A DNA stretch of 64,000 nucleotides, from contig NC_052404.1 in assembly GCF_009389715.1 (NCBI RefSeq), forward strand, positions 2,038,738 to 2,102,737, written 5' to 3'. The DNA comes from Phoenix dactylifera. Its lineage: Eukaryota > Streptophyta > Magnoliopsida > Arecales > Arecaceae. Below are positions 18,248-43,739 of this stretch, piece after piece (position 1 is the stretch's first letter; the number at the start of each line of letters is the position of its first letter). The notes beneath the pieces are model-generated. The model saw only the letters and a program-made list of their open reading frames with translations. It was not told the origin of the DNA and ran no database searches. A program made the translations under genes and the position numbers.

Positions 18248-18254
18248 TATATAG
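18248..18254 (+). promoter_or_regulatory. TATA box of NF-YB gene 1
   Basis: TATATAG within GAGCTATATAGGATGAG, about 76 bp upstream of the chosen ATG. The equivalent position upstream of the second NF-YB gene (43145–43155) also holds a TATA sequence in related flanking sequence, which supports both. Confidence 0.65.
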
Positions 18255-18329
18255 GATGAGCCGGTGGGAGGCCGAGGTGCGACGTGTCTACATTCCAAAG
18301 GGGGGGTTTCGGTGGATTTGAGTGTGGAT

Positions 18330-18857
18330 ATGGCTGATGCCATGGGGAGCAGCGCAGACCTGGAAGGTCGTCAAAATAATTGCTGCACAGACCAGGGGGG
18401 CGAAGAAGGAGGCATCAAGGAGCAAGATCGGCTGCTGCCCATCGCCAACGTGGGGAGGATCATGAAGCAAATCCTTCCCCCCAACGCCAAGATCTCCAAG
18501 GAAGCCAAGGAGACGATGCAGGAGTGCGTGTCGGAGTTTATTAGCTTCGTCACGGGGGAGGCCTCGGATAAGTGCCACAAGGAGAAGCGCAAGACGGTGA
18601 ACGGTGACGACATATGCTGGGCCCTCAGCACGCTGGGGTTCGACGACTACGCCGAGCCGATGAGGAGGTACTTGCAGAAGTATCGGGAGATGGAAGGGGA
18701 TAGAGCAGCTTCAGGAAGTCATGGTAGTAGGGCGAACAGTTTGGATTCTAGAGACGAAGCAAGAGGTGAGCAGCAGAGAGATCAATCATCTGGAGCTTGC
18801 CAATTCATGTTTAATGCCTTGGAGAGGAACGATGCTTCGACATCAAGGCGATTTTAG
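18330..18857 (+). CDS. NF-YB: NF-YB (HAP3) CCAAT-binding factor subunit, non-LEC1 type, gene 1
   Basis: Histone-fold subunit that pairs with NF-YC and recruits NF-YA to CCAAT boxes in promoters. The intronless frame encodes 175 aa. The histone-fold core spans about residues 31–120 and starts [20 protein letters not shown]. Further conserved parts are [39 protein letters not shown] and the [13 protein letters not shown] helix. Lys at the position of the LEC1-specific Asp (ISKEAK, not ISDDAK) makes it a non-LEC1 type; the core most resembles Arabidopsis NF-YB5. The start is ATG 18330 (MADAMGSS); the frame is open further upstream, but that would run close to the TATA box at 18248 and adds only a non-ATG extension. 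The C-terminus is Ser/Arg/Gln-rich and unrelated to known domains. A degraded copy of this gene lies at about 39800–40400. Confidence 0.93.
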
Positions 18858-19427
18858 GATCGATCTTCGAGTCTGCAAGTGATTGAACGAAAACTAGTGT
18901 GTGTTGATGATGGCAACAATGATTAGGGTGGCGGCTGTAGCTGTTGCAGAGAAGATGATGGCGCTGGTGATCATATGTATGCTCTTTTATTTGTCATAAG
19001 GTCAGAAATCTTGGATTTCTGCTTTGCTTGTAAGCGTTGTTGGCTGAATTCTTGGATTGCTATGTTTCTGTGCTAATCTTTTTTGATCTCTCTAGCTGCT
19101 TTCTATTTTTCATATAGTAATTAAGCACAAATAGAGAGAAGAAATTTCCACTTTACCACTCAGACATAAATGTGGGTATTAATTAGATTTATTGTTCTTA
19201 ATTGTATGCAGTACAAGATCGCGTTCCTCAACTTCTCGCAAAAAAAGTAAAATTATCATACTGAATATCTTGTTGCCTTATCAAAAACTTCGTTCTAAGC
19301 AGTGGTTGGAAACAAAGGAACTGAATTATTTACACAACCAGAAGAGGATGATAATCGGTAAGAGGTGTCCTTTATGTGATTATTAACTGTATACTAATCT
19401 ATAATAATTATATAGTGTTTGAAGTAG
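18858..19427 (+). other. 3' flank of NF-YB gene 1
   Basis: Likely 3' UTR. The segment near 19105–19165 (CATAGTAATTA...AGAGAGAAGAAA) is still recognisable downstream of the pseudogene near 40330. No other gene is seen. Confidence 0.5.
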
Positions 19428-19517
19428 AGAATAGGCTACTGAAATTTTTTTTTTTTGAGACATAGAGGACGAAGTGAGAAACTTCCCCCATTTATTGATC
19501 AGAATAGGCTGCTGAAA
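19428..19517 (-). mobile_element. Severely 5'-truncated LINE insertion (~56 bp) with 17-bp target duplication
   Basis: A near-perfect direct repeat, AGAATAGGCTACTGAAA (19428–19444) and AGAATAGGCTGCTGAAA (19501–19517), encloses only 56 bp. The insert begins with a run of T (poly-A on the minus strand), followed on the minus strand by a GGGGGAAGTTTCTCACTTCG tail, similar to the 3' end of the neighbouring LINE at 19600 (GGGGGAAGCATTTCGCTTCC). This is the signature of target-primed reverse transcription that stopped almost at once. Confidence 0.8.
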
Positions 19518-19599
19518 TCACTTGGAGAGAAAGCAAATTAGAGAAAATACAAAGTGTTGGTTCTAATGTCGTTTGAGGCATGTGAAACGATATAGTCTT

Positions 19600-20280
19600 T
19601 TTTCGATGGGAACCGGAGGAAGCGAAATGCTTCCCCCAACTTTATCATGATAAAAGAATGAATGAGTACGTATGCAGTCTAGAGATCGACAGGAGAGGAA
19701 AGGAGAGAGTTACAGTGAGTGAACAAGTTATGCAGTAAGATTAGGCAGCATCAGGGAATTCAGAATGATGCGGTGCCCATCTTTTGAAGCATCTGAGCAC
19801 ATGTTTCCCCAAATCTGAAAGGAGTGAAGAATTTTGTGCTGAATTGTTGTGATTGTGAACTTTTTTAGGAGGAATATTCTCGCATTCTTTTCTTGCCAAA
19901 TTTGCCAACAAATTGCCATAGATAGTTGATCCCAAGCTTTCCTCAGTTGTGCCTTAATTTTTCCTTCTTCTCCTAGTTGTCCAAAGCTCCTGTAGGTTTG
20001 GGGTCGTCCATTAACGTTTAGACAAGAGAGAAAAGAAGACCACATCCTTCTGGTGAAAGGACATCTGATTAGGAGATGATCAACAGCTAGTTTTGGTACT
20101 TATCGCACAAAGGGCAACCCCGTACTTATCCTCCATCCTTTTTCTTTTTTTGGCTGTGACCTCTCCAGTGTGCAGTCTATCTTTTGATGCAAGCCACATG
20201 AACACTTTAATTAATCTTTTCCCGTACTGCTGCCTTCCAGATTGCTTTATAGTATGGACAAAGGATACCACCATTATTAA
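19600..20280 (-). mobile_element. LINE (non-LTR retrotransposon) remnant, zinc-binding RT C-terminal region
   Basis: Reading the minus strand, 20080–20274 gives VFMWLASKDRLHTGEV and ...VALC, the zf-RVT motif found after the reverse transcriptase of plant LINEs. After a frameshift near 20080 it continues LAVDHLLIRCPFTRRMWSSF and then WQIWQEKNARIF (about 19860–19900), also typical. The 3' tail, GGGGGAAGCATTTCGCTTCC, ends in a short A run at about 19600. The upstream RT and endonuclease are missing, so this is a dead fragment. It sits between the duplicated NF-YB block members. Confidence 0.8.
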
Positions 20281-20939
20281 GGAATTTATAGGACTTACCA
20301 GTGAAGGAATTTATAGGACTTCAGAGGCATTTGAAATGGTAATCACGATTGGAATAAATCAAGATCTGAGACATGGTTTTCTCATGTAAATTGAGGAAAG
20401 AAGCAAGAGTGCTGGCCAATCTATGAAATATTTTAGTCGCGCCAATAGTATCTATGATAAAAATAGCGTTACATAGTTATGGATTGGTTACTCTTGTGCT
20501 TCAGCTTGCTCTTTCATTGACAATCCTTGCAAGCAAACCAAAACTAGTGTTCAACATTTACATTCCATATCTTCCCTCAAAAAAAAAAAAATTTACTTTC
20601 CATATCAATGATGCTTGATCATTTTTATCCTCTAAGTCCATTTATATATTGACTCTTGGCAATTTCTCCCCCCTTTACCATTCTTGTTGTGGTTCATTTA
20701 TTCTTCAGGATTTTAGTGCAAGGCTATACAAGCATATCTTGCCATTTAAAACTCTAACATAATATTTAGTGAATCTGGGACTGGCTATTTGAGAAAATCC
20801 TAGTTCATGTTTCATCTGGAGGGTTTTTCCATCCACCTATATGATGTCTAAAACCAAGCAAGCATCTGAAATAAAAAGGTATATGCCTCTCCTGTTTATG
20901 TTAGATGCTCACTTTAACAGCATAACTGTGTTCGACCAT

Positions 20940-21309
20940 TGTTATCACATAGGTCTACTTTTCATGTTTCCTTAAACCCTAGCCAGGGGACCGTGGACAG
21001 CCCTTGCCTCAGGATAAGTTGCATTGTTTCCTGTCAAAGCCAAACAAGCTTTATGATACTGGGACGGTTTTGCTTCCTAGCTAGAGCTGAAGATGACTGA
21101 AAACTTGGGGTAAGTATTGGTCTTGAATTCCAGTAGCATTGTTATATAACTAGATATTGTTCTCACCGAGAATCAAAGTTCTTTGGAAACAGCAAATATC
21201 AAAAGTAGAATTTCCCCCTTCGGAATTAGTTTCGCTAAGAGGTTCTTTTCCTGGTGGTGGTGTTATGGCCTTTGCAAAGAGAAGCAGTGTTGACTGTTGA
21301 GTCTCTCCT

Positions 21310-21362
<53 letters not shown>

Positions 21363-21615
21363 GTATATAAATATATTTACACACCCCAATATGTAGAGAA
21401 AGACCTACCTATCTATCTTAATATTGAACCAGTTCTACCAGAATGTGCATGCTGTGGAAGTCCGAATCAACAACTTCAGCTTGCGGCCACTGTACATCTT
21501 GTCTGCAAGTGTCACCTCGGTGCCTGTGAAGACTTTGATGGAAAAAAACTCTGAATCGACAATGGAGTGGAAGTCGTGGAGAGTGTCCGTGATGACATGC
21601 GTGCATTAGCCACCG
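20940..21615. repeat. Copy A of a duplicated block of unknown content
   Basis: Collinear similarity by eye to 40857–41460: shared phrases include TTAAACCCT, AGGTCTA, TTCC-TTGTTTCC, TGGTTTTG/CGGTTTTG, TGTTATGGCCTTTGCAAAGAG against GTATTGCTCTGGCCTTTGCAGAGAG, and CAAGTGTCACCTCGGTGCC against CAGGTGTCACCTCGATATA. The minus strand over 21440–21600 reads as an open segment (SIKVFTGTEVTLADKMYS) that I do not recognise. This copy is interrupted by a (CT)n(TA)n tract. Confidence 0.6.
21310..21368. repeat. (CT)n followed by (TA)n microsatellite
   Basis: A run of CT dinucleotides from about 21310 passes into TATATA at 21348 and ends TATGTATA. It interrupts copy A of the duplicated block. Confidence 0.95.
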
Positions 21616-23619
21616 TCTCTTGGCACTCGAACAAGCAGTTAGACTAGAGAAATAATGTTCAGAAGAATGCCATCATAAACTTTGAACTGCATGTCACGTC
21701 AAGATATGTGGTTTTCCCGTGTTTTTTTCCAGGCAATACAACAATTTAGGCCTCATATATGAAAAGTTCCTGCAAATATTTACCAGAGAATGCTAGCGAT
21801 ATCGTTCCGAAATGCAGATTTGGAGAGCAGCGGGCCCGCGCGTGCTGTCAAGTTGGAAAGAATCATTTCCCTACTAAAAAACCCAAAAGTTCACCTCAGT
21901 CTACTACCACAAGATAAAAGGATAAAAGATGGAGAAAACTTTTTGTGAACCCAAGAAATGAATTGTTACGAGAGATGATGGGAGGAACTAGTCTCTGACC
22001 CCCATTCCCAGCAAAAGCTAAAGACATTAATGGGTACTTTGATACCTTATCCAAGTTCATGCATGCTAAGTAAATTTGTAAGCTCGCCATTATTGTTGCT
22101 TCAGTACAGTTCTGGAAGACAGACTTTGCTTCCCTTATTTCTAGCGGAAAAGAAAAGCAAAAAAACTTGTTATTTACTTAAAAGCTCCTAATTAGTGAAT
22201 GTACACATAATTCACAGTAAAGAACCAGTGCATGGTTTATCTGCAGTTATGCCAAAGGATGTGAATACATGCATAAATTTTAGTAAAATAATTAAAAAAT
22301 GAAGAATTTTTCATGACAAGATTTTTAAAGAGAATTACGTACGGAAGACCAACACTTTACTTCCATTTTGTTAGAGATTACGTGCATAAAATCATTATGA
22401 TATAGACACGTACAGGAAGGGTTGCTGCAAAAAAAACTCACTTCTATCACATAAAGGAAATCCCTTTCTTAAGTTGAGCAAATTCCATGGACAAGTAACA
22501 TATATTAAAAACTAAATGAATGGCACTAATCACTCATAGATTCGAATGCAAAGAAGAATGAGCCATGACATTGCACTTCTATACAACAATTAATGTGCAG
22601 TATCAGCATTTGTTGTATAAAATACTGTATGCCCAAGCGCACATGGTATATAGACTTACTATATTAATCAGTTTCAGATCCTTGTGAATTTTCTTCGAGA
22701 TACATAATCTCACAGAATTTCTACTGAAACACTAATCTGAGAACATAATGCCTTGATATACTTATTGCAGCAATACCAACCAGAGTCTCATCTTGGAATC
22801 CTCTATCCTTTTACTTTGTACTTTCTTTAATTTAATTTGTCTAATAGCTAATTTTGAAGATAATTTGATTTGTCCAGTAGTTACATGATTTCAACTAGGA
22901 TCATGGAGGAAATTTCTACTGTGCATATGATAAAATAGTTCAGCACACAGACATAAGAAAATTGTTGAAAATTTTCGGTCCAAATGGATGGCATATCATT
23001 GGCTATGAAGGCATTACCAGAAACAATACTATTAGGAAGCCGGTAAGTGAAAGATATGACATTTCCCAACTAGATGGGTTATATATATCGATTGTGCTAG
23101 CTTTACAATATGGAAAAATTACTAAAACCATTGAAACATACTATCTAAATTAGCCACATGCAACTTTCCTTGCTAAAAGCATATTTTTGTACTCGAGTTT
23201 TATAATCAGGAAACGAGAAATTGTTTTAACGACAAACGTAAGATTTTTTTTACCAAATCGAGGCAAAATAAAAGCAATCTATACTATACAAATGATCTGG
23301 TGACTATGGAACTGGTAGAACTTTATAGTAAAAATAGCTTATTTTATGATTTTGTGGAGAAATCAATGTCAAAAAGATACTGAATCCACCCATTTTTCTT
23401 TTCATTCTTTCTTTTGTAGAACAAGGGACATCAGAAGATTGTAGAGCTTCATACCACTCTTAGTCAAAAAATTTGGACCAATTATATTTTTCATAATGTT
23501 GAAGGATTGTTCGAATAATTAATAATATTTACAATATTTTTTTCATAAAAGTCTTTAAAATAACGTATGTCAATCATATATTCTAACAAAATAGCATTGC
23601 ATGTCTTTCAAATAATGTC
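21616..23619. other. AT-rich spacer without recognised gene
   Basis: No coding similarity, long repeat or RNA gene is seen. Short ORFs are scattered on both strands without conserved features. Confidence 0.45.
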
Positions 23620-24377
<758 letters not shown>

Positions 24378-24482
24378 GTGTGTGCGTATCTCTGATACAA
24401 TCTAACTGGATCTACCATCCTTCCCCTCTTCTTTCTCCTCCCCTTTCCTCTTCCTCTCTTTCTCTCCCTCTCTTTTTCTAGA

Positions 24483-26163
24483 TCTCCACCCATAGGAAAC
24501 CCCATGAATAAAGCAAGGAAAAGAGTGCATGACCTCAAGCACGCTTCTCTCTTTATTTTTCAAATTAGGCAAACTATTTGCATCATGCTAGGTACCAACT
24601 AATTCCAACCAATTTTGGCCGGGACATATAGGATGTCCTTGCTTGGCTAAGGAGCAATTTCTCACACTTTGTATTATCTTGTTTTCTTGACAGAACAATA
24701 CGATACAAACAATATCATCCTATTTTCGGCAAACCTTAGTTCTTAGTCATTTATATTTTTTAATATAGATTTGACATCTTTTAGGGTGCTGAGAGTGTCT
24801 ATTTTGTACATCACCTATACTTGATATCAACTTCATGTAAAAAAAAAGATAAATCTATAAAGTGTCATCCACCAAATATCATAATATCAATTTTTATGTG
24901 TGTAAAGATATACTATCTAATAATAAATAAGATCATCCATTAAATATAATAGCACTACTCATAAGTTAAAAATATCCACAATTGCATATCATCAACTATC
25001 GAAGAAAGATGTTCATAATTACATGACATAATTCACTTCTTATTTTCCTCCTCTCCTATACTCTTTTTGGCTAAGACATGAAATAACTCGATAAACTCAT
25101 ACTTTAAACAACTTGTTGGACCACTGATTGTTAGAGTCGTCCAATTGAAATGTAGCCAATCTATTATAGAATAATTTACTCCCATTGAGCTTGTAGTATG
25201 GTGGTTGTTATAGCAAATGTTTGTTTGATATATCGGCCATTTCATAACAAAACACTATCTAATGCTTTTTGGGCTAGCAATGGTAAACCTAATTTTTACA
25301 ATAACGGACTTGACATATTGACACTCCTCTATGAAAGAATTTATACTCGCAATATCCCTCCCCCACCCCAAAAAAATATATAAAACACCTTGACAAAAAG
25401 AAAATAAAATATCAAAAGAAATTTATCATATATAAATTTAGAATAATGCTACAACAGTTAGATATTTGGCATCAAGAAAAAAAGTTTATGGTTAAGAGTG
25501 GATTGATGCGGTTCATAGGATTAGCTTAATTTATGGGTGAATTCTAGTATAAAGTGCTAACTATCTTATGAATTGCGGTTCTGAAGCTATTCTTGGTACC
25601 AAATTGCATCTTAAAGTATTTTTATAGAGTAAGATGCTAAAGACCACCTGCTAGATAGTCACTTAGATCAACAGGTTAACATGAAAGTCGATGACTAATC
25701 AAATGGTAACCATGACAACAACATCAGCTTGGAGAGCTAAACAGTGATATGGTAGATCATTGGTAGAGGTACTCTTTCATAAATTAACATCATCAACAAG
25801 GTCATAAGAATCAACATTTTATTTAAATTCCCATACCATCATCAACATATCAGCCGAGATGAAAAACCTAGCTGGAGTCTAATTGAAATCAAATTATACG
25901 ACAATAAAGGTATCGCGGTCGGCAATTGGGTGAGATTAACACCTCTTCCGAGTCGAACCTGAACTCAGAACACGACCCAAGGCCCAAATATCGGACATGC
26001 GAGGGTTCGTTCTTTCCAAGCCGGAGGGAGGGTTCTTTCTTTCCAAGTCGGCCAAGCCCTTCTCCCTTCTTTCTCTCGCTCGCTCGCGGACGTAAGCAAG
26101 CGCTGGGATAAAAGAGCCATCCATTCCCTTTCTTTGAGGGAAGAAAGCGTCGGCCTTGTGGCA
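24483..26163 (+). other. Spacer and promoter/5' leader of the 331-aa protein gene
   Basis: 24.5–25.9 kb is AT-rich with nothing recognised. From about 25920 the composition rises in GC, with repeated TTCTTTCCAAG(T/C)CGG words and a CTCGCTCGCTCGCG run, consistent with a plant core promoter and 5' UTR for the gene starting at 26164. No clear TATA box is seen in this part. Confidence 0.5.
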
Positions 26164-29100
26164 ATGGCGGGGGTTGCTCTCCTGGTTGATCTCTTGAAGA
26201 GAAGTCAGGGCTTCTCCGCCCAATCCCTCCACTCCCACAGCTTGTTCTCCGCCACCGTCGCCGCCTCGGCCGCGGCCGCTTCCATTGCGGCGGGGAGGCC
26301 TTTCGCCTCCCGCGCTATTTTCGGGTGAGTTTATTGGATCCCCCCTTTCTTGCCTGCGTTCTCGGTGTTTTTGTTTCATAATCTCTTGTTGGGATTAGAA
26401 GATTTAAGATTCTCGTTCATAGGTTTCACCAGATCAAGAAAAAGATCGTTTTTCTCTAACAAAAAAAACATCATCTTTCTCTGGTTCCCGTTACTAAATT
26501 TACGCTACAAAGGTGTGAGTATGCGTCAAGAACTTAGATATAAACGGATATAATTTCTAGTAATGGGTAATCCGTGGTGGAATTATCAGAACTTTCCTTT
26601 TCCTTCTTTGATTGTAGTCTGCATTGGATTGGATCTGGAACGAATTCTCTGTGCAAAGTTGTGAGGACAGATAATGCGAGGATGAATGAGTCTGCTGACC
26701 TATTCTAGGCAGCTCCAACATCAAATTTTTAAACAGTTTATGCTTGTTGTACATGAAATTGTTTATGATTTTCCACATTCTGTATAATTTATTATATATT
26801 TGAAGCTATGGTTTTACTGATAAGAATCAAACATGGGATAATTTTGGATATTAATTAGGAGGCAAGGATTTAGTCATATTCAAATTTAAGCAAAAGTATG
26901 CGACTTTAGAAGGGAAAGAGGGCCTTCTCTTGAAGCATAAACTGCTGGTTGGAGAGTACAAAAATGTACCATGTTGGTAGCAGTATAAGCTTATAAGGCT
27001 AAAGAGCAATCTCATGAAATTCCTATGTCTAGAAGAAAAGGTAATTGATGGGGTTCTGATATAGGGTATTGCGTTTAACTTTCATGGAAAAGTTATTAGC
27101 TAAAGCTCAAAATGTTTGATGGAATAATGCACGCTCTAATGGGGTGAAACGTGTAAGAAAGTTCAGAAAGTTTTACTATTACTTGGAGCAATAGACTTTG
27201 AGGATTATAGGTATTCAACAAGATGTTGACTTATAAAGACGAGATGGGTCATCATAGTTGTGCTGAAATGACAAAAGTAAAAAAACTGTCGCCATCATGT
27301 TTGTAATGAAAAGAAATAATTTTAAGATGCTCCAACAACGGTCAGATATTCTTACAAGGCCACTTCTGTAATGACAAATACAAAGTTTACTTTGTTAAGT
27401 TCCAGAATGTAGTATGGTTGTGGGGGAACAGATGATATTTAGCTTTTCAAGTGTCTCTTCTGAAGGGCTGAACTGGAAGGATCTGTAGAATGAGGTGGTC
27501 ATATAGTAGAGTATGTTGGCGAAGATTTTCTAGTTATTTAAGGTGGCTAGGCAGGATATAATCTAGGAAGGAAAACTGTCGTTTTTGTGGCCAGTATTTA
27601 TCTATGTTAAAGAAGAACATCTGGAGTTCAATATGAAGTGTGCAACTATTCTGGAGGATATAAAAGGGTAGTCAGATGATTATCTCTATAATGTCTCTTC
27701 ATGAGATGCTTCTTGGTGTCATGAAAAAGTGTAGAGAGAGAGAGAGAGAGCCATTCCTTGTATCTAATTTGGATCCTGTATTTGTTTTCTCTTGTGTTTG
27801 AGCTTCTTGTAAGTGCTTTTCTTAGGTTCCTGTCTCACGATGCTTTTGTGAGGTTTTGTAACCTTTTTTGATGGTCACTCTTGTTCTATTAACTTAATTG
27901 TATCTTGAAGTGTATTCTTATACATGCTATTCTGGCTATCCATTAATTAAAATTTTTGATGTAGCTAGTGAAGATCACTGGCACCTCATTTATTTCGGAG
28001 TATCTGTTGCACCTGCATTTCTTATTTAATTTTAAAGATCATACTGTTTTCTTGCTGATGCAATCATATTTTCCAATTCTCATGTACCTTGTTTCTTGTA
28101 ATGGATTGTTCGTTTATTCAATTGTAAAGATCACACTCTTCCCATTTGGTACGTTGTAAGAGTTGCCATAACTGACTGGCTTAGCCTGATGCCCTTTATT
28201 AGAAGTCAGCCTCCAGAGTCCTTTTTCTTGCATTCATTCTACAAAGGGGTAGTCCCATAGCTCGTGTGTTTTTCTAGACCTGTTTAATACATCCATTAAG
28301 GTCTTATAGCTTGCATCTCTTTCCTTCTTTCTTTTCGGATCTTAAACTTTCTCTTTACTATCACAACGTGTAGTTTTTGTTGCATATAAACCATACCTTT
28401 TGAATCAGTTCATTATTTTTATGTCTTTCGATGCATGGCTCAAATTATTTCTCTTTGTGTTCATTACTTCATTCACCCACATATCAATCTCAACAATGTC
28501 GCCTTTGGTGAACTATCTTTGAAACTCCCGGCTTTCCTCATTTTTTGGAACAATGCAGCATTGGCACACTTGGCAATTTCATAAAAATCTGCCTTAGGTA
28601 TCACTAGCATGCATCATATTATAATGGTCTGGAAAGAGAAGCAATGTCCATTTCATTTAACCTATACATAATACTCCAGAGAATTGTGATATATCTTTCC
28701 ACTGTTCTGTGATGAGATAGCCAAATCAGTTACAGTCAATTGCAGTACCTTTTGGCCATTGAATTTGAATGTGACCATATTTTTCATTGTAATCCTGTAA
28801 ACATTTCTGATGACATATGTTAAGAATAGGTATTTTGTAAGCACCTTCTTGTGGTTGTGATAGAGTTGTTAACGCACAACTCATCATTTAAAAGAGAATT
28901 CCTTTATATTGGTTACACCATTATTTCATGTTGTGGTTATCTGAAATTCATGGCCTTCATCTCTAATGGCTGTAATGTATTTTATTTCAGTGATGGAGGA
29001 TTATTTTCGATTGCTTATTGTGATGCTGGTGCAAGTGCAGCATTGAACACTGATTATGTTCCTGATCTTCACAGTGCTTCTAAAGATACATTTTATCATG

Positions 29101-32100: not shown

Positions 32101-34614
32101 AAATTAAAACTATGTATAATTAAGAAAATGGAAGCAAAACTCCTTGTACAAATGTGTGATGCAGATGTTGATAGGACAAATTTTGCTGAAGACTATCAAG
32201 CAGAACTAAAATATGGGATAAGGCTTATGAGTTATTGTTACTGAAATCTGGCTTGTGCAATGCGCGTGCTTGATTGAGGGAAGAGAGTGCTCAATGGATG
32301 GCTGACAGAAGCAGGAGAGGGAGGTCATTCTGTTGTCAACCTTCATTTCTTTCCTACACAAGAATTTAATAAGAAAATCTGTATTTTGGAGATGTGTGCT
32401 TTTTCATGATATACTTACTCTCTGTATTTTATTTTTTTTGCATTATGTTTATAAATTTATACGAATATGCTTTCATGCGTACTTTTTTCTAATTAATCAA
32501 CTTTTTTGGTTTTAGCAAACAAATTGTTCCTCCTCAGTTTGTGCTACTTCGCACTGCTTTTCAGGTGTTCTCTTACCATTTGCCAACATACTCAACTTGA
32601 TTGTGCATACATCATTCGTTGAGATTGTAGGACCTATAAGCTGAATTATGTTGACCAATGAGCCTTGTCCAATTTATATATGATAGACTTTATATGGATG
32701 AATGTGTTTAAGATTTGTTCTCAACTTTTTAAATCGAATTTGCTTATATTCATTTGTTTAATAGCAATTTTGTCAATCATAGGAGCAACAACTTACTGGT
32801 TTTAGCTGTCTTATGCATTTCAGACTTCTATTGTAACGACTAGACGAGTGCTGGAAAGACTTGCTGTTCAGTATGTTTCACCAAGAATGGCATGGAAACT
32901 TCTTAAAGGTACTTAGCCTTACAAATCTACAAAAATATATTTTTTCACAAATGTTTGAAGTGCTTCTCTATGCTCCTCTGTCTTGCTGGGTATGATAGTT
33001 GCCAAGTCAACGACCCTATTTTAGCTAAATCCTTCAGAGAAATTGAGCTGCGGGGATACAAAACCGATAAACATTTTTTACTTGTAAATTTAAAAATGAA
33101 CTGCATGAACAGTGGTGATATTGTGTAATAAATTTCCTTTTTTTCATTAAAAATTCTTAGGAGAATTCGGAATAGTTTGCTGATCTATTTCCATTGTGTT
33201 AAATTATTAATTTTGACAAAGACATGGAAGATCTAGAATCATCTTGCACATCATGTGTTCCATGGTTTACAAATGAAAGAGTTCAGAGCTGTCGGTTCGG
33301 TTGCTGTGCTAGTTCAATAAGTTGTTCAGCAAGCAACTTTTGTTGGAAAGTACCAGCTTGCTCCACTTTATACTTCAGAACGTTTATCTATACTGCATTT
33401 AGGAGTTGTTTTGGTAGGCAACAATAGTATGTGCCATCCTTATTTTCAGATTCTCATAATGGCCTTTTTTCTTTTGCGTGGTGGGTGGAGGGCTTATGGA
33501 GAAGCAGTATATGCTTTCCCTGATTGATTTATGAGGGGGTGATAATACATGCTTATGTGCAAAGACATGTTTCTAACTCACCTGGGCACCAAGAGAATTC
33601 TCAGTTAGCACATATAATAAGTACTTCTAGTCTTCCTTATTTTCTTCTTGATATTGATTGTGGAAACAAATGACAAAGGAATGGAAACATTATAGTGCCC
33701 ATGCATCTGACGTGCCACAAAGTTGGCCATGTCATTTTTCTTTTGTCAACCTTTTCTCTCTTGACCAAAAGTTGCAAACATGGTCCTTATTTGATTACAC
33801 ACTAGTCATTGACCCTATACATCATTAAAAAAAAAATCCTTTAAGGTGTATTGAGGTTAGCCTTATGATTAGCCTCTCACACATAGCCCTTATTAAGACC
33901 AACTTCATCGTATTATTGTCATCTTCAACTGAGATCATTGATATGCATTTTTCCCATACTGTTCATCAACTTTATCCTCTTTAGCCTGCATTGCCAACTT
34001 ACTTAGTGTACGGTCTTAAATTGCTGCCAATTGGTTTCTTTTATTATTGTCCATAGTACTACTTGAAGCTTCCTTTGGAGCAGGATTTTAAGTTTTGGCT
34101 GAAACCAATCAATTTCGGCTGAGACCAAATGAAACTAAGCCCAATCAGTTTCAGTAGAAATTGACTAGCTTCAGTTAAGTTTCGGTGGTTTTAGCCTGTT
34201 TCAGCTGATATTAGCGATAGATGTGTCTTTTGAGTTTTAATATTATTTTTTTAATCTAATATCATTTTTTTATCATTGTAAGTACATAGGATATATAATA
34301 TCAATTATTAAAGTTTTCCCTTTTATTTTCTTGAGTTAAATTAGAGATTCAGTAATAAAGAAAAAGATTCGACTGCACTAAGCAATGAAAAACTTAATAA
34401 TAGCTAATATAATGAATGTTCAAATAATTAAAGTTTGAGAAGTAAGTAATATACACACAGATGCACAAATACATATAAATACATGCATGCATACATACAT
34501 ACATATACATACATACATGCATATACATACATACATGCATATACATACATACATACATATACATATATACATACATACATATACATATATAGATACATAC
34601 ATATACATATATAG

Positions 34615-34665
<51 letters not shown>

Positions 34666-34796
34666 CATATATATACATATATATACATACATACATATAT
34701 ATATACATACATACATATATATACATACATACATATATATACATACATACATATATATACATACATACATATATATACATACATACATATATATAC

Positions 34797-34830
<34 letters not shown>

Positions 34831-37800
34831 ACATACATATATATATACATACATATATATATATATATGATCATGGTGCAAAATGCTAGTATACTAATAG
34901 GTTTCACTTATATGCAATATTAACTTCCATCTTAAATTGTCTAAATTACATAAATAAGGAACCTATATAATACAAGATATCCTAAAATGTGGTGTAATAG
35001 CTTTTCTTGGCTTCTTTTATTTTCTTCACATTGAATTCTTCTTAAATTTTCTTTCTGAAACTTTGAAACCTGGAGTAGAGCTTCTGAAACCACCGAATCT
35101 GCTGAAGCCAGAATTGTGTGGACTTGGCTGGAACTGAAACTAAGTTTTCAATCTTGCTCTAGAGGATGGCTTCTGGTCATTTACATTTTATGCATTGGTT
35201 TACATGGCATGTCACCATCATTCTACTTCATGGCTTCTAGTTATAAATCCTATTGGTGTTTACCCTTGCATATGACTTCATTCATTGTCATGTGTCCACA
35301 AGCGCAATATTGGCTCATCCAATGAAGCAAACACCTTGGCAATTCCTCCAGCAGTAACTGAAGTTCTTTGAGTCCTATTTAGCAGATTTATTTCATAGTC
35401 ATTCCTTTTTTAATGCTACCGGTGTAATATGGTCCACCTTGAGTATTAAGGAGGTTGTGGGAAACAGTTGGTATAGCAGCCCTTAATCATTCTATATACC
35501 TGCTGCACTTGAATATTTAGTGTACTTTATGCATGTAATTTTGTCTTTTTGTGATTTATGCATATACTGTGTAAATAAATCGATATGTTGTTGCATGATA
35601 ACCCATGCATTTGTTATTTCTCTTGAGTCCTTTATATCTATCTAAAAGATGATCTACAGACAGCTGATGCACATATAAGTCAGGCATATGGTTGCACAAC
35701 ACCCCCTATAGAACATGCTGCTGCTACTAATATAAAATATCAAGCCTGAAGTATATGGACTGTGAAGAAACATTAACATTGTGCATTTTGGGGATCTTGT
35801 CAGTTGCTATTTTAGGGTGCTATGTTATATTTACTGGAGGACATCCATTGCATCATTTTTTTTTTCAATACAGATGAAGTTTCTTTCGAACAAAAACATT
35901 TGTCTGTTCCACTATTTGTTTCCATTATCTGAATAATCAGTTGTTCTTCACATGCTAATGATTGAGTTGTGGTTCTCAGACATTCCTAAGTCAGCCAGGC
36001 GCAAAGCCAACAGAGGGATGCCATCTCTCTTGTATTTCTACAGTGTCAGCAGAACAACTTTCAGAGGTTGAACTTTTGGCAATAATATCTTTCATTTGTA
36101 AGCTATAGATATTCTCACTGATTCTTATTGTCATCTTTTTTTCCCCATCAGGACATTTGTTAGGCGTAGCTGCATCATGGCTTGTTCAGACCATGGTTGA
36201 AATTTACAGATGCTTCATCCGCAAGTCCAACAATGGTAATGAAGAGGTTGATATAAGGGCGAAAGTCAGACGTTTTAGGAAAAAGGTGTACGGAACTATG
36301 GTCAAATGTAGTGCATCATTAGTTTTTGCATCAATTGGTGCAGGGATTGGTGCCCTTTTTCATCCCTCAACTGGTCAATGGATTGGTAAGTAAACAGCTC
36401 ATGGACTTTTCACACATAATCTTTTGGTTAAGGCCATTGATTGTTGCCCGAATATGCTTCATCTTCTTAATTAACTAAATCACAAGACAATTATATAATT
36501 TTCTGAAAAAAATCTTGAAAATTATCTGCCCATTCTTCTTTTGATCAACACTTAGTAAAAATGTAATTGCCTCTTTCAGGTTTGAACTGATGGTAGTTAA
36601 TAATGGAATCCAGAAACTTCCATTCCGAAATTTATTTTAGGGAAGTGTAACCCCAGCTCTTTCTTGATCACCTGTTGATAATGATCAGATAGACAGGCAC
36701 ACAGACATTCTATATATAAATTCATAGCAATAAATATTTAATGCATGAACATCACTATGCTAGAATGTAAATGCTAATGACATATTGGCAACAAGATCTG
36801 CTGTCTCTTGATGTGCATGGTTAAGGTGTTGAATTTGTAAGATCAACCATTATGATGCTCAAGCTCATGATTATAAAAGAGAGATCATAACCTTTTTAAG
36901 GATGTTTTTTTTTGGCTTTCCTTGTATATTTAATCCTCCTACTAAGTTGTGTGGCATTAGGATGCTGATGCCACATGAAGAGTTCTAGATTTAGTGTACT
37001 TCTGCATTCTTGCTTGGGTATAAACAAGATATATCTTTTAAGATTTTGGAATAAGTGAAAAAATTGATAGAGCTCATAATAAATTATGTTTGCCTCTAAG
37101 AATATTTTGAATAGCTTAGCTAAGACCTTATTACATAATACAACTAATATATTTGAGGTAAGCTTCCTTGAAAATCCTTCTACATGGTTGACATTGACGC
37201 TAGTGTTTACATGAAGACACAAATAGGGATGTTCAAATCCTCTGTTCACTAGGGGAGTTAGGGGTATCTACAGACCTCTTCTATCAAAAAATGCAATATC
37301 ATAATGTAAATAGTCTCTATGTGGGATGTTCTGTGCAATATGTAACAGCTCTTCTGGACAACATGCTGACATTTTAGACATGTCACTGTGACAGGCATGA
37401 TGACCACCGAACCGTGGCTTAAAATCCCTTCAGCTCCAAATTCATTACCAATCACGTGGTTCCTCCTAAATGTTCAGGTGTCCATTAGGACATGGTTGCA
37501 TGTTAGACACATGTCAAATGCTGTGACATAGGCACTAGTGACCACTTAAACGTGGCTTAAAATCCCTTCAAATTCATTACCGATCACTTGGTTGCTCCTA
37601 AATGCAACCTGGTCACACGGTGTTGCTAAGTAGCTCGCTCATATTTCAGTAGCTACAGGTTTCATTGATTCTTAATAATAGTTTATTTTTTAACTTTATT
37701 TGACTACTCATTATTTGGTTGTATGCTCGCATGAACTTGAACTGTTGAGCTTTTTTTTGAATGAATAAATAATATTATTCTACATTTCATAAGAATATGT

Positions 37801-38403
37801 CATTTTACGAAAATAATTTTAAAGGCTTTTTTCTGCATTATGTTATTTTCCTTTTTCAGCTTATTCTGATTTAGTTCTATTCATCAACCTGCAAGCTACT
37901 TTTGGTTGAGCTAATCATGCAATCCCACTTTACACCTATGAAATGCCATTTCCGTATCAATCTTAAACATCCTTCTTTTTCCTCCTATATTACTGAAACA
38001 TTTTAATTCTCACCTTCTATTATGCCATCCTGGCCTGCCCTCATCCAAAAACTACAGTTGTCATTAATTCTAGAAATAATCTTCATGACTTGAGTAGCTG
38101 ATTAACAGTGCTTTCTGTGACCAATGACCCGTTTAACCAGTGAGGATCTGGCCTATCTTTTGGTTGGTTGGATTCTTTAAACACGTAATGATTGTTGATT
38201 CGTTAATGTCCAGTTTATGACATTCTTTCTGGTGTTGTCTGCCTTATTATTATTCCATTTTACTTTATACCGTCTATTAAGCCTTCTGACCTAGCCATTG
38301 CTTAATATTGTGCTTCTGTGATGCCACAGGTTGTGCTCTTGGGGATTTCGCAGGGCCTGTCATTGTCGTTGTTTGTTTTGAGAAGCTTCAAATGGATATA
38401 TGA
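26164..38403 (+). CDS. Conserved plant protein of unknown function, 331 aa, probably organellar membrane protein
   Basis: Six exons join in frame: 26164–26324, 28991–29345, 32824–32908, 35980–36066, 36152–36385, 38330–38403 (TGA), 996 bp in total. All introns are GT–AG. The N-terminus ([17 protein letters not shown]) followed by an Ala/Ser-rich stretch without acidic residues looks like an organelle transit or membrane signal. Then come a conserved central part ([20 protein letters not shown]), an acidic run of six Asp (about residues 126–131), [20 protein letters not shown], a [13 protein letters not shown] segment, and hydrophobic [18 protein letters not shown] near the end, closing with a Gly-rich [15 protein letters not shown] tail. 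I recognise it as a single-copy land-plant family (my recollection is that the Arabidopsis member is an unnamed 'transmembrane protein'), but no biochemical role is known to me. Introns total over 11 kb, and intron 3 contains a large microsatellite. Confidence 0.88.
34085..35150. repeat. Diverged inverted repeat flanking a long microsatellite (intron 3)
   Basis: The left arm (about 34085–34215) is full of TTTCGGCTGA/GTTTCAG words and contains TTTCGGTGGTTTTAGCC. The right arm (about 35055–35150) contains the reverse complement of a related stretch (CTGAAACCACCGAATCTGC, GGAACTGAAACTAAG). Between them lies a ~400-bp array. It resembles a foldback-type repeat, but no target duplication was found. 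Confidence 0.45.
34460..34868. repeat. TACATA/TATATACA microsatellite array, ~400 bp
   Basis: Phased repeats of CATACATATATATA, TACATACA and TATA. Every frame is open on the minus strand and one on the plus strand, giving long Tyr/Ile/Cys/Met ORFs that are not genes. Confidence 0.98.
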
Positions 38404-39799
38404 GGTCACAATAATGATATCTGATGTTTTGCAAGTGCCAGGTGCCTCCTACAGCTGTTTACTGGTTTGAAGTCTCCGAATATGCCGTTAAATAGGTTTG
38501 AAGTCTCTGAATATGCCGTTAAAACGGCAGTCAGGTTAACAACAGCCGTCAGGGAACTAAGTGGTACTAGTTAATAACATTTGGCCCTCATTTTTCAGTC
38601 ATCCAAGCTCATGTCTTAGTTTACAAAACACGCTTAGGGAACATCTGGACTGGATAAATTCAGAAGAACAACCAGCTGCACCAAAATCAGGTGCCTATCA
38701 TGTATGGAAAAGTTTGAATCTTGATGAGCTACTGTTCTCCCTTTCTTAATGCAGTAATAAATGCGCACTATGGATTTTTGGTTTCCTTTCTCTTTCAAAT
38801 TGCAATGAGGCACTCAAAGTGTTCTTTCATCATTTGTTGTCACAATCAGTGCATGTACTTTTTCTATTTTATAGACTTTAAGTTTGGAGCTCCTAATTTT
38901 TTTTATCACTGCTTAAGTCGTTGGAACAGAATAAGGCCACCACTAATTGTTTGCAAGAGAGCACCCATTATCAGAGAACAAAGTAAGCTTGTGTTGTCTT
39001 TTGAGGGAAAATAAGCTTCTACTGCTATTTAATTGCCTCCACAGACTATTGAACAGATGCTACTTTTCCATCCTTTCTGGAATAGGTTCTCCTGTTTTTT
39101 CGCTGTATCTGCAGCACTCAGAATAAATACTTTCAAGTTTACTTGTAACTGCTGCATTCTTCCCCTTGCCCCCTTTTTCTCTCTGTGCAACGAACTTGCT
39201 ACAACAGTTTACTGTCTAGTTGTATAGAATATGGCCATGCTTCACCCAAATTATAGCAAACCACACTTAAACTATGCCGGTGATTTTTAGGGGTGAAAGT
39301 GGATCGGACAATATTTGTCCGAGTTTATTTCGTATTTGAATCTAACCGAATATGAATAAAAATTTAAGCATCCGGCTAATATATTATATCCATTGAAGAA
39401 AATGGATTTGAGTATGGATAAATAACTATCTGATTGAATATTTGATTATATTTGTAGCTCTATTTAATTTTATATAATATTCATAAAAATTTTTTAAAAA
39501 TAAATAATTATATTACCATGCTATTAATTTGACTTATCATCTATATAGTAATATTTTTAATTCTGCAATTATCGAATTTATATCCGTATTTGTATCTATA
39601 TTTTTAATATTCGATAATTCATATCTATTTAAAATAAATACGAATATGAATTTTTACATCCGGCTACCATCTATATCTATATTCATATTCATCAAATAAA
39701 ATAAATATAAATATAGACATATGATCATCCAATCTGTATCCAATCAGCATTCAGCTTTTTGATTATGGTGAGTAGGAGAGATGCGTGAGCAGCAACAAA
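38404..39799 (+). other. 3' flank of the 331-aa protein gene; AT-rich repeat
   Basis: Likely 3' UTR and spacer. A tandem duplication (GGTTTGAAGTCTC-GAATATGCC) lies at about 38465–38520, and AATAAA at 38756–38761. A 190-bp open frame at 38561–38749 may be an untranslated alternative exon; I do not recognise its product. From about 39292 to 39735 a segment starting AGGGGTGAAAGTGGATCGG, rich in GAATATGAAT/ATTCATATTC words, resembles plant hAT-type MITEs, but its ends are not defined. Confidence 0.45.
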
Positions 39800-40400
39800 T
39801 ATGTTTACATTCAAAGTGGGGTTTCATTGCATTTGATTTTTTTTTAACCAACTTGTTGAGCTACCACCTTCAGCAAATTCGATTGGTGGCCAAGGGTGTG
39901 GAGGAGCCTCGAGTCTGAAGGCTTTCATGATAGCTACACGGCCTCGAGCTCCTGCACTGGCATGGCCTTAGGCAAGAGGGCTCGAGAAGCAAAACTGGCA
40001 GCTTTTCTTTGCCATTGCCAGCCTAGGAAAGATCATGAAGCAAGTCCACCCTCCCCCAACTACGGTGCCAAGATCTGCGTGAAGCCTGGGAGATAGTGCA
40101 AGAGCATTAGCGCATGGTAACGCTCATTAGCTTTTGGAGACCTTCCAATATGCGCCTTCTCCAGGAAAAGTTCAGGAAAAGTGCAACAACTAAGAGCGGT
40201 TTCAGGAGGTCATGATAGTAGGCAGTTTGGATGCCAGAGATGAACTGAGAGGCAAGCCATAGCAGAACTCTATCTTTGCTGGGTGTTTTTCTCATCCTCG
40301 ATCCCTTTGGACAATCTCTGTATTTTCTCATAGTAATTATGTAGATATAGAGAAGAGAAACATCAACGTCTAATGACTTGTAATTCATGGAAAATGTGGT
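39800..40400 (+). pseudogene. Degraded NF-YB copy, type 1 (relative of 18330–18857)
   Basis: Similarity to gene 1 is clear in four places: upstream (TTCAAAGTGGGGTTTC against TTCCAAAGGGGGGGTTTC); the core (AAAGATCATGAAGCAAGTCC... GTGCCAAGATCT against AGGATCATGAAGCAAATCC... ACGCCAAGATCT); the C-terminal part (TTTCAGGAGGTCATGATAGT, GGCAGTTTGGATGCCAGAGA, GAACTGAGAGGCAAGC); and the 3' UTR (TTCTCATAGTAATTATG). No ATG corresponds to the start, frames are shifted, stops interrupt (GGGAGATAG), and most of the histone fold is deleted. Not functional. Confidence 0.85.
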
Positions 40401-40856
40401 CAATAATCAATTTTATTTTTCTAAGCATATCCAGCATAAAGTTACAGGATCAAACTTTTAATTCCTTGCTCGAAGAAGTTTTGATCTTAAAAGTGTTTAA
40501 GAGCAAAGGGATCTTGGCATAAGATATTGGGGTTGTAAATTTGTAATCAATTTATGTGTTTGAATCTTTTAGCCCCACCCTTTCATTTTAAAAGCAACCA
40601 AAGATGAGTGCTTAAAATTGCATCCAATCTCAACATCCCTAGCGAACATTTTTTCAGCATGGTTCTTAATATTTCTTTTCCTTTCCATGACATTGAACAA
40701 TAAAAACATCTCTTGCTATTCTAAAACTCAAATGCTTAGTGTTCAAAAAACCAAATGTTTCATCTGGAGCTTCCATTTGTCATGAAAGAACAAGAATCCA
40801 AAATGTATATCACCCTTGTTTATGTAACAATGTCCATTTGAACATTGTTGAACTTG
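40401..40856. other. Spacer between pseudogene and duplicated block
   Basis: No coding or repeat signal recognised. Confidence 0.4.
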
Positions 40857-41460
40857 TCCACGGTTTCGACAAAGGTCTAGATCTCATGGTTCGTTAAACC
40901 CTGACAAGGAGAACATGAACGTCCCTTGGCCCTAGGTAACTTCCATTGTTTCCATAAAAAGTGTCCAGCAGGTTCCTGCAACTTGGCCTTACTATATTAG
41001 GATGGTTTTGTTTCCAAAAACTGTGCCCAAACCTTGAGTTACTAGTCTTGGACTTCAGTTGCAGTGTCTGTCTAGATTAAATAACTAAAGTTCTTTTCTT
41101 TCTTTTTTTTGCTTCAACAAGAAATTTTTTAGTAAACAGCAACCATTAAAAAAGAAGCACCTTTTACAATTTAATATTTTGAGGAGGTTTTCTATAGATG
41201 AACCCTATGAACTGGGAGGGCTGTTGGTATTGCTCTGGCCTTTGCAGAGAGCAACAATGTTAGATTCTCTACTGAATCCACAGAAATGCGCCTCGGATAT
41301 TGGAGTCTCATCAGCCGCAGCACGCGAGCATCGCACGGATTGTCGGCAGGTGTCACCTCGATATATGCAAAGGTTTCTGACTAAAAGTTTGAACAGCCAA
41401 TTGAATGGCTATTGCATGGAGTGTCAGCAATGGTGTAGGGTGCAAAGGTTTCACTAAATT
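40857..41460. repeat. Copy B of the duplicated block of unknown content
   Basis: Collinear counterpart of 20940–21615 (same order relative to the NF-YB copies). It lacks the (CT)n(TA)n interruption. The best preserved part is 41225–41400. Neither strand gives a recognised protein: a plus-strand frame at 41179–41457 is open for 92 codons, but the copy A equivalent is not conserved in frame. Confidence 0.6.
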
Positions 41461-42849
41461 GGTGCAAGCAAACCATGAAGCTTGAGTAACAAGTATTTAG
41501 TCTTGTTATATGACATGAAGTGCATGTTAACTGCATGTAATGTTAGAAAATGTGGAACTTGTTCTTCCTTGGAAGAAAAAGGACTTCTCAGTGTATCTTA
41601 TGATAAGCAATATAATGATTTTTACACCCCATTATTCAGACAATTTTCTTATATCTAACTGATAATGCTTGTGGTATCATGACAGATTTTCCAAAAAAGT
41701 GCACGAACTTCTCATGCTTTATTAATGCAACATATCTTTCTCCCATATTAAACCATCAAGCGAGCATTTTGTTCTTTCTGTTTCCTTGAGAGGAGACAGC
41801 CATATAGCCAGGAGAATGACAGCCATATAGCCAGGAGAATGAATTAACGATATAAAAATCAAGCCAAGAAAATGAAATGTTATGCAAGATGTTAGGACGC
41901 ATAGCATTGTTTATTTAAGAATTAATATGGCCCACTAACTTCCTATACTTTAACAATGAAATAAATTTTAATTTTACTATGATAAATGAATTAAGTCTCT
42001 CTCTGGAACCCTTTGTTTTATCTAATTAATTGACTTTTAATTCTGATAATAATGCAGTCAACAATTTAAAGAACTTCCTATTTAACCAAATAAAATGTCT
42101 CCAAAACCTTAACCGATATGAAGATAGATAAGAGGTAGTAGCATAAAATTTTATCAAAAATGGAAGCTTCTGATACTTTGCCCTTTTTCTGGTAAGTTTC
42201 AATGCTTTGCCTTGAGGAGGCAGCTGAGCACTAACATGTGAATTTCAACAACAAAAATCCACTATAACGAGGTAGCTTTATAAGGAATCTCTTTGAGCCA
42301 TCTGCTGTGTAATCCTTTGATGCATAGAGTAGCCCTTTTTCTTTGTACAAACAATATATACCTAATAACATATGGCACTCAATGTTCATGCAGTTTTTAC
42401 TATGAAACCCTAGTTTTTACTATGTTCATGCATCAGAGCTTCTCAAAGTATAAGTAGCATTTTAGATTTACTCATAAATGCATCTTATGGTCGGATAAAT
42501 GACCCATCATATATATGGCTTTGGCTTTTACTGCACATACTGTTTTATATATTTGGGTCACTTTAGAGAATCCTATTTGCAATACATCTGAGTAATCGCA
42601 AGTTGTTTTCTGCTAGGGTTTTTGCATTCAAAAGTTTTTTCTTTAAATTTCTCTAATGCTTCCATCATTTTTTCGTCCCTAGATCCTCAAAATGAAGGGC
42701 TACAAAACAGATAATAAGTCTGCATCCTCTGCGACATTTTAAGCGTCGTAAGATAAATTATTTACAAATATGTACACTAAATCATATACAGCACAACAAA
42801 TCATTGCTTTCATTTTAAATATGTTTGAATCATATGCTAGTGTCTGCTT
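41461..42849. other. AT-rich spacer
   Basis: Contains a perfect tandem duplication of about 23 bp (ACAGCCATATAGCCAGGAGA, 41799–41841). No gene recognised. Confidence 0.45.
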
Positions 42850-43143
42850 GTCAATTTCAGATCAGGCAACATGATCGAACCAACATCACTCTTTTCTCAT
42901 ACAAGCATTACTTATTAAATGAAAACCTAACCTAACAAAATATTATTAGTATTTAGAGTAGTGGATCCATTATTAGAGTGATGACCCACCAGCACGCCAA
43001 ACAAAGTTAGGCCTCTAGCATTAAAACATTCAACCTCTCAAGTAGTTCAAGAAAATGGAATACCTGAGTCATGTCTCTGCTTGCCCTCCAATAAACAAGG
43101 AGAAAGATGTCAGTGCATTTGCTGCGCATATGTATAAGCACCC

Positions 43144-43154
43144 CTATATATATT
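43144..43154 (+). promoter_or_regulatory. TATA box of NF-YB gene 2
   Basis: CTATATATATT at 43144–43154, about 70–80 bp upstream of ATG 43224 and followed by GGGGCCAAGGCGCAACGTGTC. That last segment aligns with GGAGGCCGAGGTGCGACGTGTC after the TATA box of NF-YB gene 1. This argues that the in-frame ATG at 43107 lies upstream of the transcription start. Confidence 0.65.
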
Positions 43155-43223
43155 GAGATGCCTGAGGGGCCAAGGCGCAACGTGTCTGTGTTTGATGAGT
43201 TCAGGTTTTTCTCCTCCCTAAAA

Positions 43224-43739
43224 ATGGATAGTAATACAGATGGCCAACCTTATTTGAGAGGCCATGACTGCAATGTTACAATAGACAAAGCAGGTGCTAC
43301 ATCATATGAATGCATCAATGGGCAAAATCACCTATTGCCGATAGCCAATGTGGGACGAATTATGAAGCAAGCGCTGCCAAACAATGCAAGGATATCCAAA
43401 CCAGCAAAAGAAACTATGCAGGAATGTGCGTCCGAGTTCATCAGCTTTGTCACCGAGGAAGCCACTGAACAATGCCGCAAGGAGAAGCGCAAGACTATCA
43501 ATGGGGATGATATTTGTTCTGCTATGAAGACACTTGGCCTTGATGAGTATGCTGATGCCATGAAAAGATATTTGTGTAGATACAGAGAGCATGAAGAGAA
43601 GGCCACCTCTATGAAGCGCAATAAGCCAGCTCAGATTAATGTTAGAAATGAATTGCCAGTCTTTAGAAGCAATCAGTATAGAGACCGATCGCCTTCCAAG
43701 AGTCCTTGCAATGTAGCAAAGGAAAAGAAATTTCTCTGA
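43224..43739 (+). CDS. NF-YB: NF-YB (HAP3) CCAAT-binding factor subunit, divergent, gene 2
   Basis: Intronless, 171 aa from ATG 43224 ([10 protein letters not shown]). The frame is open back to ATG 43107, but that codon precedes the TATA box, and the homologous region of gene 1 is untranslated. The histone-fold core (about residues 36–122) starts [17 protein letters not shown] and continues [32 protein letters not shown] and [20 protein letters not shown]. Like gene 1 it has Lys, not Asp, at the LEC1 signature position. It differs from the family at usually fixed sites: [10 protein letters not shown] for [10 protein letters not shown], and Ser for Trp after DDIC. The C-terminus is basic. It is a tandem-duplicate relative of gene 1 and of the pseudogene at 23.6–24.3 kb. 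NF-YC pairing seems possible; expression is unknown. Confidence 0.9.

What the first reader, a model, noticed from the sequence alone, without database searches (positions are those of the whole stretch)
18248..43739. Duplicated NF-YB pair with reciprocal gene loss
Two blocks carry the same order: NF-YB type 1, an unknown conserved segment, NF-YB type 2. In block A (18.2–24.3 kb) type 1 is intact and type 2 is broken. In block B (39.8–43.7 kb) type 1 is broken and type 2 is intact. Similarity extends outside the coding parts: the type 2 upstream region (23620–24100 against 42850–43220), the type 1 3' UTR (19105 against 40330), and the middle segment (20940–21615 against 40857–41460). The 331-aa protein gene lies between the blocks. 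Complementary loss after a segmental duplication would keep one copy of each type but separate them by about 25 kb.
Basis: partly seen in the sequence, partly recalled or inferred. Interest (0 to 1): 0.8.

Follow-up and report, generated by a model that had tools for sequence, protein, structure and literature searches.

The report
Duplicated NF-YB gene pair, complementary loss
In a plant chromosome, a neighbouring pair of transcription-factor genes appears to have been copied as one block, after which each copy lost a different member, so both genes survive but about 25 kb apart; this is a clear, fairly ordinary example of how duplicated genes are sorted out.

Summary
Blocks A (18.2-24.3 kb) and B (39.8-43.7 kb), both on the + strand, share the order type 1 - middle segment - type 2. 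Outside the histone-fold cores, the type 1 C-terminal/3' part, the middle and the type 2 upstream region match each other better than all 300 placements elsewhere in the window and all 300 shuffles. A1 and B2 are intact NF-YB genes under purifying selection (K at codon positions 1+2 0.17, K3 1.49); B1 and A2 drift (0.27/0.31, 0.26/0.44). So the types split long before the block was copied. Pairing A1 with B1 and A2 with B2 is favoured by 4 of 6 alignments; the 2 that force B1 onto B2 do not decide and lean slightly the other way, so pairing leans on flanking DNA. An addition: the intact genes share a TATA-to-ACGTGTC promoter stretch (0 of 1000 controls) not kept in the dead copies. I read this as an old block duplication followed by complementary pseudogenisation: a good example of a known process. 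No plant genome could be searched, so ancestral state, block edges and further copies are untested.

The parts
18247..18289 (+). A1 core promoter: TATA stretch to ACGTGTC (motif at 18282, 48 nt before the ATG)
   Evidence: Aligned to B2 promoter, score 102; 0 of 1000 placements and 0 of 1000 shuffles reach it; positions
18330..18857 (+). A1: intact type 1 NF-YB gene, one uninterrupted ORF, 175 aa
   Evidence: ORF; PF00808 E 5.7e-28; plant NF-YB structures, best E 1.8e-48; K12/K3 against B2 0.11
18702..19200 (+). A1 C-terminal coding end (to 18857) and 3' UTR, matched in block B
20807..21665 (+). Middle segment, copy A; no strand or frame preference in translated comparison, no Rfam family
23586..24004 (+). 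Type 2 upstream region, copy A
   Evidence: score 560 against maxima of 109 and 107 in controls
24010..24268 (+). A2: broken type 2 NF-YB (start lost, in-frame stop, frameshift, cut short by TA repeat 24259-24364)
26100..39220 (.). Interval between blocks with exon-like ORFs; sampled pieces have no convincing second copy in the window
   Evidence: (7 pieces; other hits only at E 0.41-0.8)
39764..39860 (+). B1 promoter remnant; ACGTGTC motif not kept
39870..40290 (+). B1: broken type 1 NF-YB (many indels; 150 bases of the A1 core face 59 here)
40318..40400 (+). B1 3' UTR remnant
   Evidence: score 111, 0 of 1000 placements and 0 of 1000 shuffles
40755..41520 (+). Middle segment, copy B
42793..43219 (+). 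Type 2 upstream region, copy B
43144..43187 (+). B2 core promoter: TATA stretch to ACGTGTC (motif at 43180, 44 nt before the ATG)
43224..43739 (+). B2: intact type 2 NF-YB gene, 171 aa from this ATG (ORF listed from an upstream ATG at 43107; choice of start is mine)

Best explanation
An ancestral tandem pair of NF-YB genes (type 1, middle noncoding DNA, type 2) was copied once as a block in the same orientation nearby. After that, type 2 was lost from block A and type 1 from block B. Shown here: collinearity, intact against broken state, pairing by flanks and by most alignments, the order 'type split long before block copy', and relaxed constraint in the broken pairs. Inferred: that it was one event, probably unequal crossing over or another local duplication; that both losses were early; that redundancy alone let either copy of each gene decay; and that the two survivors act as NF-YB subunits (histone-fold partner of NF-YC, with NF-YA at CCAAT boxes), which rests on family knowledge and not on any test here.
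For: Collinearity beyond the cores. Strong hits of each element at two places only. Similar divergence of most pieces: K2P 0.35 middle part 1, 0.37 type 2 upstream, 0.32 type 2 core, 0.27 type 1 C-terminus, 0.35 type 1 promoter; outliers 0.52 middle part 2 and 0.17 for 39 sites of 3' UTR. Partner tree in 4 of 6 alignments. Where A1 and B2 differ in the core alignment, B1 sides with A1 34 to 8 and A2 with B2 29 to 13. B1 core is found by the A1 core model at E 8.9e-9 and by the type 2 model only at 0.13. Three cross-type upstream pairs score 68-108 against 560 for type 2 with type 2. K12/K3: 0.11 for A1:B2 (95% 0.05-0.19), 0.87 for A1:B1 (0.38-2.13), 0.59 for B2:A2 (0.30-1.16). K3 1.49 between types against 0.31 and 0.44 within types.
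Against: Long spacers between the matching pieces do not align. Block edges are not visible, and no second copy of sampled interval pieces was found. When B1 is forced onto B2 the tree is undecided with a slight lean to A1A2|B1B2. Rate ranges are wide; that of B2:A2 core begins at 0.30, so late loss of A2 is possible. No outgroup genome was available, so further copies elsewhere, or another ancestral order, remain possible.
Confidence: 0.86

Rival explanations
1. Separate single-gene tandem duplications made an array type 1, type 2, type 1', type 2', and two of them died; no block was copied as a unit.
For: NF-YB genes do form tandem pairs (rice OsHAP3G/OsHAP3J). Spacers do not align.
Against: The middle segment and the type 2 upstream region are copied in the same order and place, and divergence is similar across most pieces. 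Single-gene events would not carry the middle segment.
Confidence: 0.08
2. The two blocks are homeologous segments from a whole-genome duplication, brought near each other by a later rearrangement.
For: Divergence is old (K about 0.3-0.45) and complementary loss is common after genome doubling (recalled).
Against: Same orientation and about 21 kb apart. Other hits of the window self-comparisons are repeat-like clusters at 0-1, 10, 13, 37 and 47-55 kb and not a second pair of identified genes.
Confidence: 0.05
3. The similarity is an artefact: chance, a repeat shared by both places, or a false duplication in the assembly.
For: The window holds many repeats; the middle has three weak extra hits, one at E 0.00015.
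Against: None of 300 or 1000 controls reaches the main pieces. Strong hits occur at two places only. About 30 percent divergence does not fit an assembly duplicate.
Confidence: 0.01

Closest known systems
Reciprocal (complementary) gene loss after duplication
   Same: Two redundant copies, each losing a different member so that one of each is kept
   Different: Best known between whole-genome duplicates or between populations (recalled); here within one local block pair of one sequence, with the dead copies still readable
Rice tandem NF-YB pair OsHAP3G/OsHAP3J on chromosome 1 (PMC4783360, passages seen)
   Same: Two adjacent, rather different NF-YB genes (49.6 percent homology there; 54 percent identity of A1 and B2 here), reported with different expression in most tissues
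   Different: One pair only is reported in rice; orthology with this window not tested. PMC12525001 (passages) lists OsNF-YB6/OsHAP3G beside LOC_Os01g70890 and LOC_Os01g70900
Adjacent OsNF-YB1/OsNF-YB7 and their maize and sorghum homologs (PMC5920288, abstract, passages and one section seen)
   Same: Old, conserved neighbourhood of two NF-YB genes
   Different: OsNF-YB7 is LEC1-type; neither gene here carries the LEC1-diagnostic Asp and His. Similarity of type 2 to OsNF-YB1 was not tested (no sequence held)
Non-LEC1 plant NF-YB proteins (PDB 7cvo NF-YB3, 7cvq NF-YB2, 7c9o NF-YB11)
   Same: Full histone-fold core in both intact genes
   Different: A1 and B2 share 9 of 90 core residues found in none of NF-YB2/3/11; B2 has 16 further private differences, A1 has 4

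Membership tests
NF-YB (CBF-A/HAP3) | Complete NF-YB histone-fold domain in an open reading frame | tested here: met
   A1 and B2: PF00808 positions 2-65 and 3-65 of 65; matches of about 90 residues to plant NF-YB structures
NF-YB (CBF-A/HAP3) | Binding to NF-YC/NF-YA and CCAAT | not testable with these tools
   needs biochemistry
LEC1-type NF-YB | Asp84 and His79 of L1L (as stated in PMC5920288) | tested here: not met
   L1L chain 5g49 reads HAKISDD; A1 reads NAKISKE and B2 NARISKP: Asn for His, Lys for Asp in both
Block (segmental) duplication | Collinear similarity including noncoding DNA | tested here: met
Block (segmental) duplication | Recognisable ends of the copied unit | tested here: not met
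   outer regions not above placements elsewhere; no second copy of 7 sampled interval pieces. Old age can erase ends
Reciprocal gene loss | Each block keeps a different member intact, partner broken | tested here: met
Reciprocal gene loss | Broken copies group with the intact partner of the other block | tested here: met
   4 of 6 alignments; 2 of 6 undecided with a slight contrary lean; flanks agree
Reciprocal gene loss | No other intact copy of either type in the genome | not testable with these tools
   The genome search on the window's own assembly did not complete

The most novel reading that the evidence does not exclude
The two genes, once neighbours in one regulatory domain, were uncoupled by the block copy, and splitting them was itself favoured: each block keeps the shared middle segment and one gene with the conserved TATA-ACGTGTC promoter, so each gene gained its own copy of a shared control region. 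The evidence does not exclude this, but the middle segment (K 0.35-0.52) is no better conserved than third codon positions (0.31-0.44), so it gets no positive support.
Probability: 0.08. Interest if true: 0.55.

Novelty: new member of a known kind. Interest (0 to 1): 0.32.

Why it matters
It is a compact case where all four outcomes of one block copy can still be read, two alive and two dead, so the order of events can be worked out from the sequence. Such complementary loss moves genes without changing gene content and can mislead synteny-based orthology. If it differs between related species or populations, crosses can produce offspring lacking one gene (established idea, recalled). The promoter stretch shared by the two intact NF-YB types, with a motif (ACGTGTC) listed beside ABRE elements in a motif table (PMC3859232, one passage seen), is a concrete lead on their control.

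Tried and rejected
Middle segment as a hidden gene: translated comparison gives equal best scores on both strands (E 1.08e-8 for one + and one - frame, stops throughout; three more frames between 2e-6 and 9e-5), so no coding signal. As an RNA: no Rfam family reaches threshold there (the only Rfam hit in the window is 5S rRNA at 55240-55358). Folding z-scores: best -3.8 in copy A (21287, of 38 windows) and -1.9 in copy B (41395, of 34 windows), not at corresponding places. Middle or upstream pieces as constrained enhancers: divergence not below that of third codon positions, so not claimed. A third block: no strong hit. Extension of the block to the interval or outer flanks: not found. LEC1 identity: rejected. 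dS of A1:B2: not obtained (NG86 gave dN 0.17 and no dS, YN00 failed). Relatives of A1 in viral contigs: none confirmed (B2 not tried). tRNAs: none.

Papers: peptide-string search 0 papers. Listings only, no title describing this locus: NF-YB + palm + tandem duplication (6 of 6 listed), NF-YB + oil palm/date palm (20 of 969), reciprocal gene loss and related terms (20 of 1,226), NF-YB + pseudogen + tandem (15 of 21), ACGTGTC/ABRE/NF-YB (8 of 266), OsHAP3G/3J (2 of 2). One search (20 of 36 listed) gave PMC5920288 and PMC4783360. PMC9887194 passages gave nothing used. These are partial listings of one open-access library, so I make no claim that the locus is unpublished.

Replaced results: the A1:B2 codon-position count was printed in a shifted frame (one search replaces it); the alignment controls used gap costs that let scores grow with length (one search replaces them; type 1 upstream was reached by 5 of 200 placements and the spacer before type 2 by 1 of 60). 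The plant group was not determined; palm was only my guess when choosing search terms.
Full report
WHAT WAS CLAIMED. Two blocks with the order NF-YB type 1, middle segment, NF-YB type 2; type 2 broken in block A (18.2-24.3 kb) and type 1 broken in block B (39.8-43.7 kb). I call the four genes A1, A2, B1 and B2.

IS IT THERE. A direct comparison of the two regions gives four collinear plus-strand matches covering type 1, the middle and type 2, plus the expected paralog match of A1 to B2. Base-level alignments show the match of type 1 upstream, the type 1 C-terminal end and 3' UTR, the middle segment, and about 400 bases upstream of type 2. Against 300 placements elsewhere in the window and 300 shuffles, the type 1 3' part (best stretch is the C-terminal coding end), the middle and the type 2 upstream region are reached by none. 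The small noncoding 3' UTR piece (0 of 1000 in both controls) and the second half of the middle (0 of 500 in both) also stand alone. The type 1 upstream match is weak in a wide window (28 of 300 placements, 4 of 300 shuffles) and clear only in a narrow one (0 of 1000 of each). The spacer before type 2 and the regions outside the blocks are matched by 72-104 of 300 placements; against shuffles they are reached by 17, 5 and 25 of 300, so a faint leftover signal before the blocks cannot be excluded. Profiles of each element find the two copies strongly; extra hits are weak: three for the middle (best E 0.00015 at 49670) and one for type 2 upstream at the A1 promoter region (E 0.036).

STATE OF THE FOUR GENES. 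A1 (18330-18857) and B2 (43224-43739) are uninterrupted and carry a complete PF00808 domain. A2 has lost its start codon, carries an in-frame stop and a frameshift, and runs into a TA repeat at 24259-24364. The rest of type 2 was not found in 24366-26000 (102 of 200 placements and 80 of 200 shuffles score as high). B1 has many indels, and 150 bases of the A1 core (18551-18700) face only 59 in B1.

WHO BELONGS WITH WHOM. Tree tests on two MAFFT alignments prefer A1B1|A2B2 (AU p 0.0003-0.002 for the alternatives). In the core alignment, where A1 and B2 differ, B1 sides with A1 at 34 sites and with B2 at 8; A2 sides with B2 at 29 and with A1 at 13. Four projected alignments were then tried. The partner-projected one, which is built towards the hypothesis, and the one with both broken copies on A1 agree (AU p below 0.001). 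The two that force B1 onto B2 do not decide. In both the best tree is A1A2|B1B2, by 3.2 and 0.6 log units, and A1B1|A2B2 is not rejected (AU 0.15 and 0.45). So 4 of 6 alignments support the pairing and 2 of 6 are undecided with a slight contrary lean. The core of B1 is short and damaged and aligns poorly to B2. Independent of the tree, the A1 core model finds B1 at E 8.9e-9 and the type 2 model only at 0.13. The flanks match partner to partner: type 2 upstream A to B scores 560, while three cross-type pairs score 68-108.

ORDER OF EVENTS. Between the two intact types, positions 1+2 differ by K 0.17 and third positions by 1.49. Within type 1 (A1:B1) the values are 0.27 and 0.31, within type 2 (B2:A2) 0.26 and 0.44. 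The 95 percent ranges of K3 do not overlap (0.97-2.59 against 0.14-0.56 and 0.25-0.71). So the types split long before the block was copied. The K12/K3 ratio is 0.11 for the intact pair (0.05-0.19), and 0.87 (0.38-2.13) and 0.59 (0.30-1.16) for the pairs with a broken member. These fit early loss of both broken copies but do not prove it. Pieces outside the cores diverge mostly by K 0.27-0.37, with outliers at 0.17 and 0.52, close to the third-position values. That fits one event and gives no sign of special constraint on the middle segment.

A SHARED PROMOTER. Aligning the roughly 95 bases before the start codons of A1 and B2 gives a 44-column match from a TATA stretch to ACGTGTC (score 102; best of 1000 placements 64, best of 1000 shuffles 60). 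ACGTGTC occurs three times in the window counting both strands, twice at these two places, starting 48 and 44 nt before the ATG. The corresponding places in A2 and B1 do not carry it. PMC3859232 lists ACGTGTC (GADOWNAT) and ACGTGKC with ABRE-type elements as enriched in a desiccation-tolerance gene list (one table passage seen). That the motif acts here is not tested. Loss in dead copies is what neutral decay predicts.

WHAT THE GENES ARE. Both are NF-YB proteins, not LEC1-type: the His and Asp that PMC5920288 calls diagnostic (section seen) are Asn and Lys in both. They share 9 core residues absent from NF-YB2, NF-YB3 and NF-YB11 (one of them, Asp105, is also Asp in the L1L row), which suggests but does not prove that they are sister types. 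Rice has a tandem NF-YB pair, OsHAP3G/OsHAP3J, with 49.6 percent homology and different expression in most tissues (PMC4783360 passages). It may be the single-block counterpart; orthology was not tested.

MECHANISM AND LIMITS. Best account: one local copy of a two-gene block, then complementary pseudogenisation because either copy of each gene was enough. The way the copy was made and its length are not shown. Seven sampled pieces of the interval between the blocks have no convincing second copy (other hits at E 0.41-0.8), so either that stretch was not copied or its copy is gone. The genome holding the window could not be searched, no relatives from other plants were obtained, and the plant itself was not identified.

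VERDICT. Interest 0.32.

Noticed in passing
18247-18289 and 43144-43187: Conserved TATA-to-ACGTGTC core promoter shared by the two intact NF-YB types although their third codon positions are near saturation.
   Followed up: partly
19428-19518: A direct repeat (19428-19445 and 19501-19518, 17 of 18 bases identical) flanks a short T-rich stretch, like a target-site duplication around a truncated retroelement. A neighbouring ORF 19728-20045 (-) gave no Pfam hit.
   Followed up: partly
54795-55358: A full-length 5S rRNA match (55240-55358, minus, 103.4 bits) lies beside direct repeats 54795-54933/55096-55235; could be a 5S-bearing retroelement or a stray 5S gene.
   Followed up: no
52246-52538 and 54042-54334: Inverted 293-base repeat, 92 percent identical, with further diverged copies near 51890 and 13220; looks like a transposable element family.
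   Followed up: no
34394-34907: Long simple-repeat tract open in several frames; its ORFs do not look like genes.
   Followed up: no
6753-7340: ORF with a MIF4G_like_2 domain (E 2.5e-26), as in cap-binding protein CBP80 (name recalled), probably part of a multi-exon gene.
   Followed up: no
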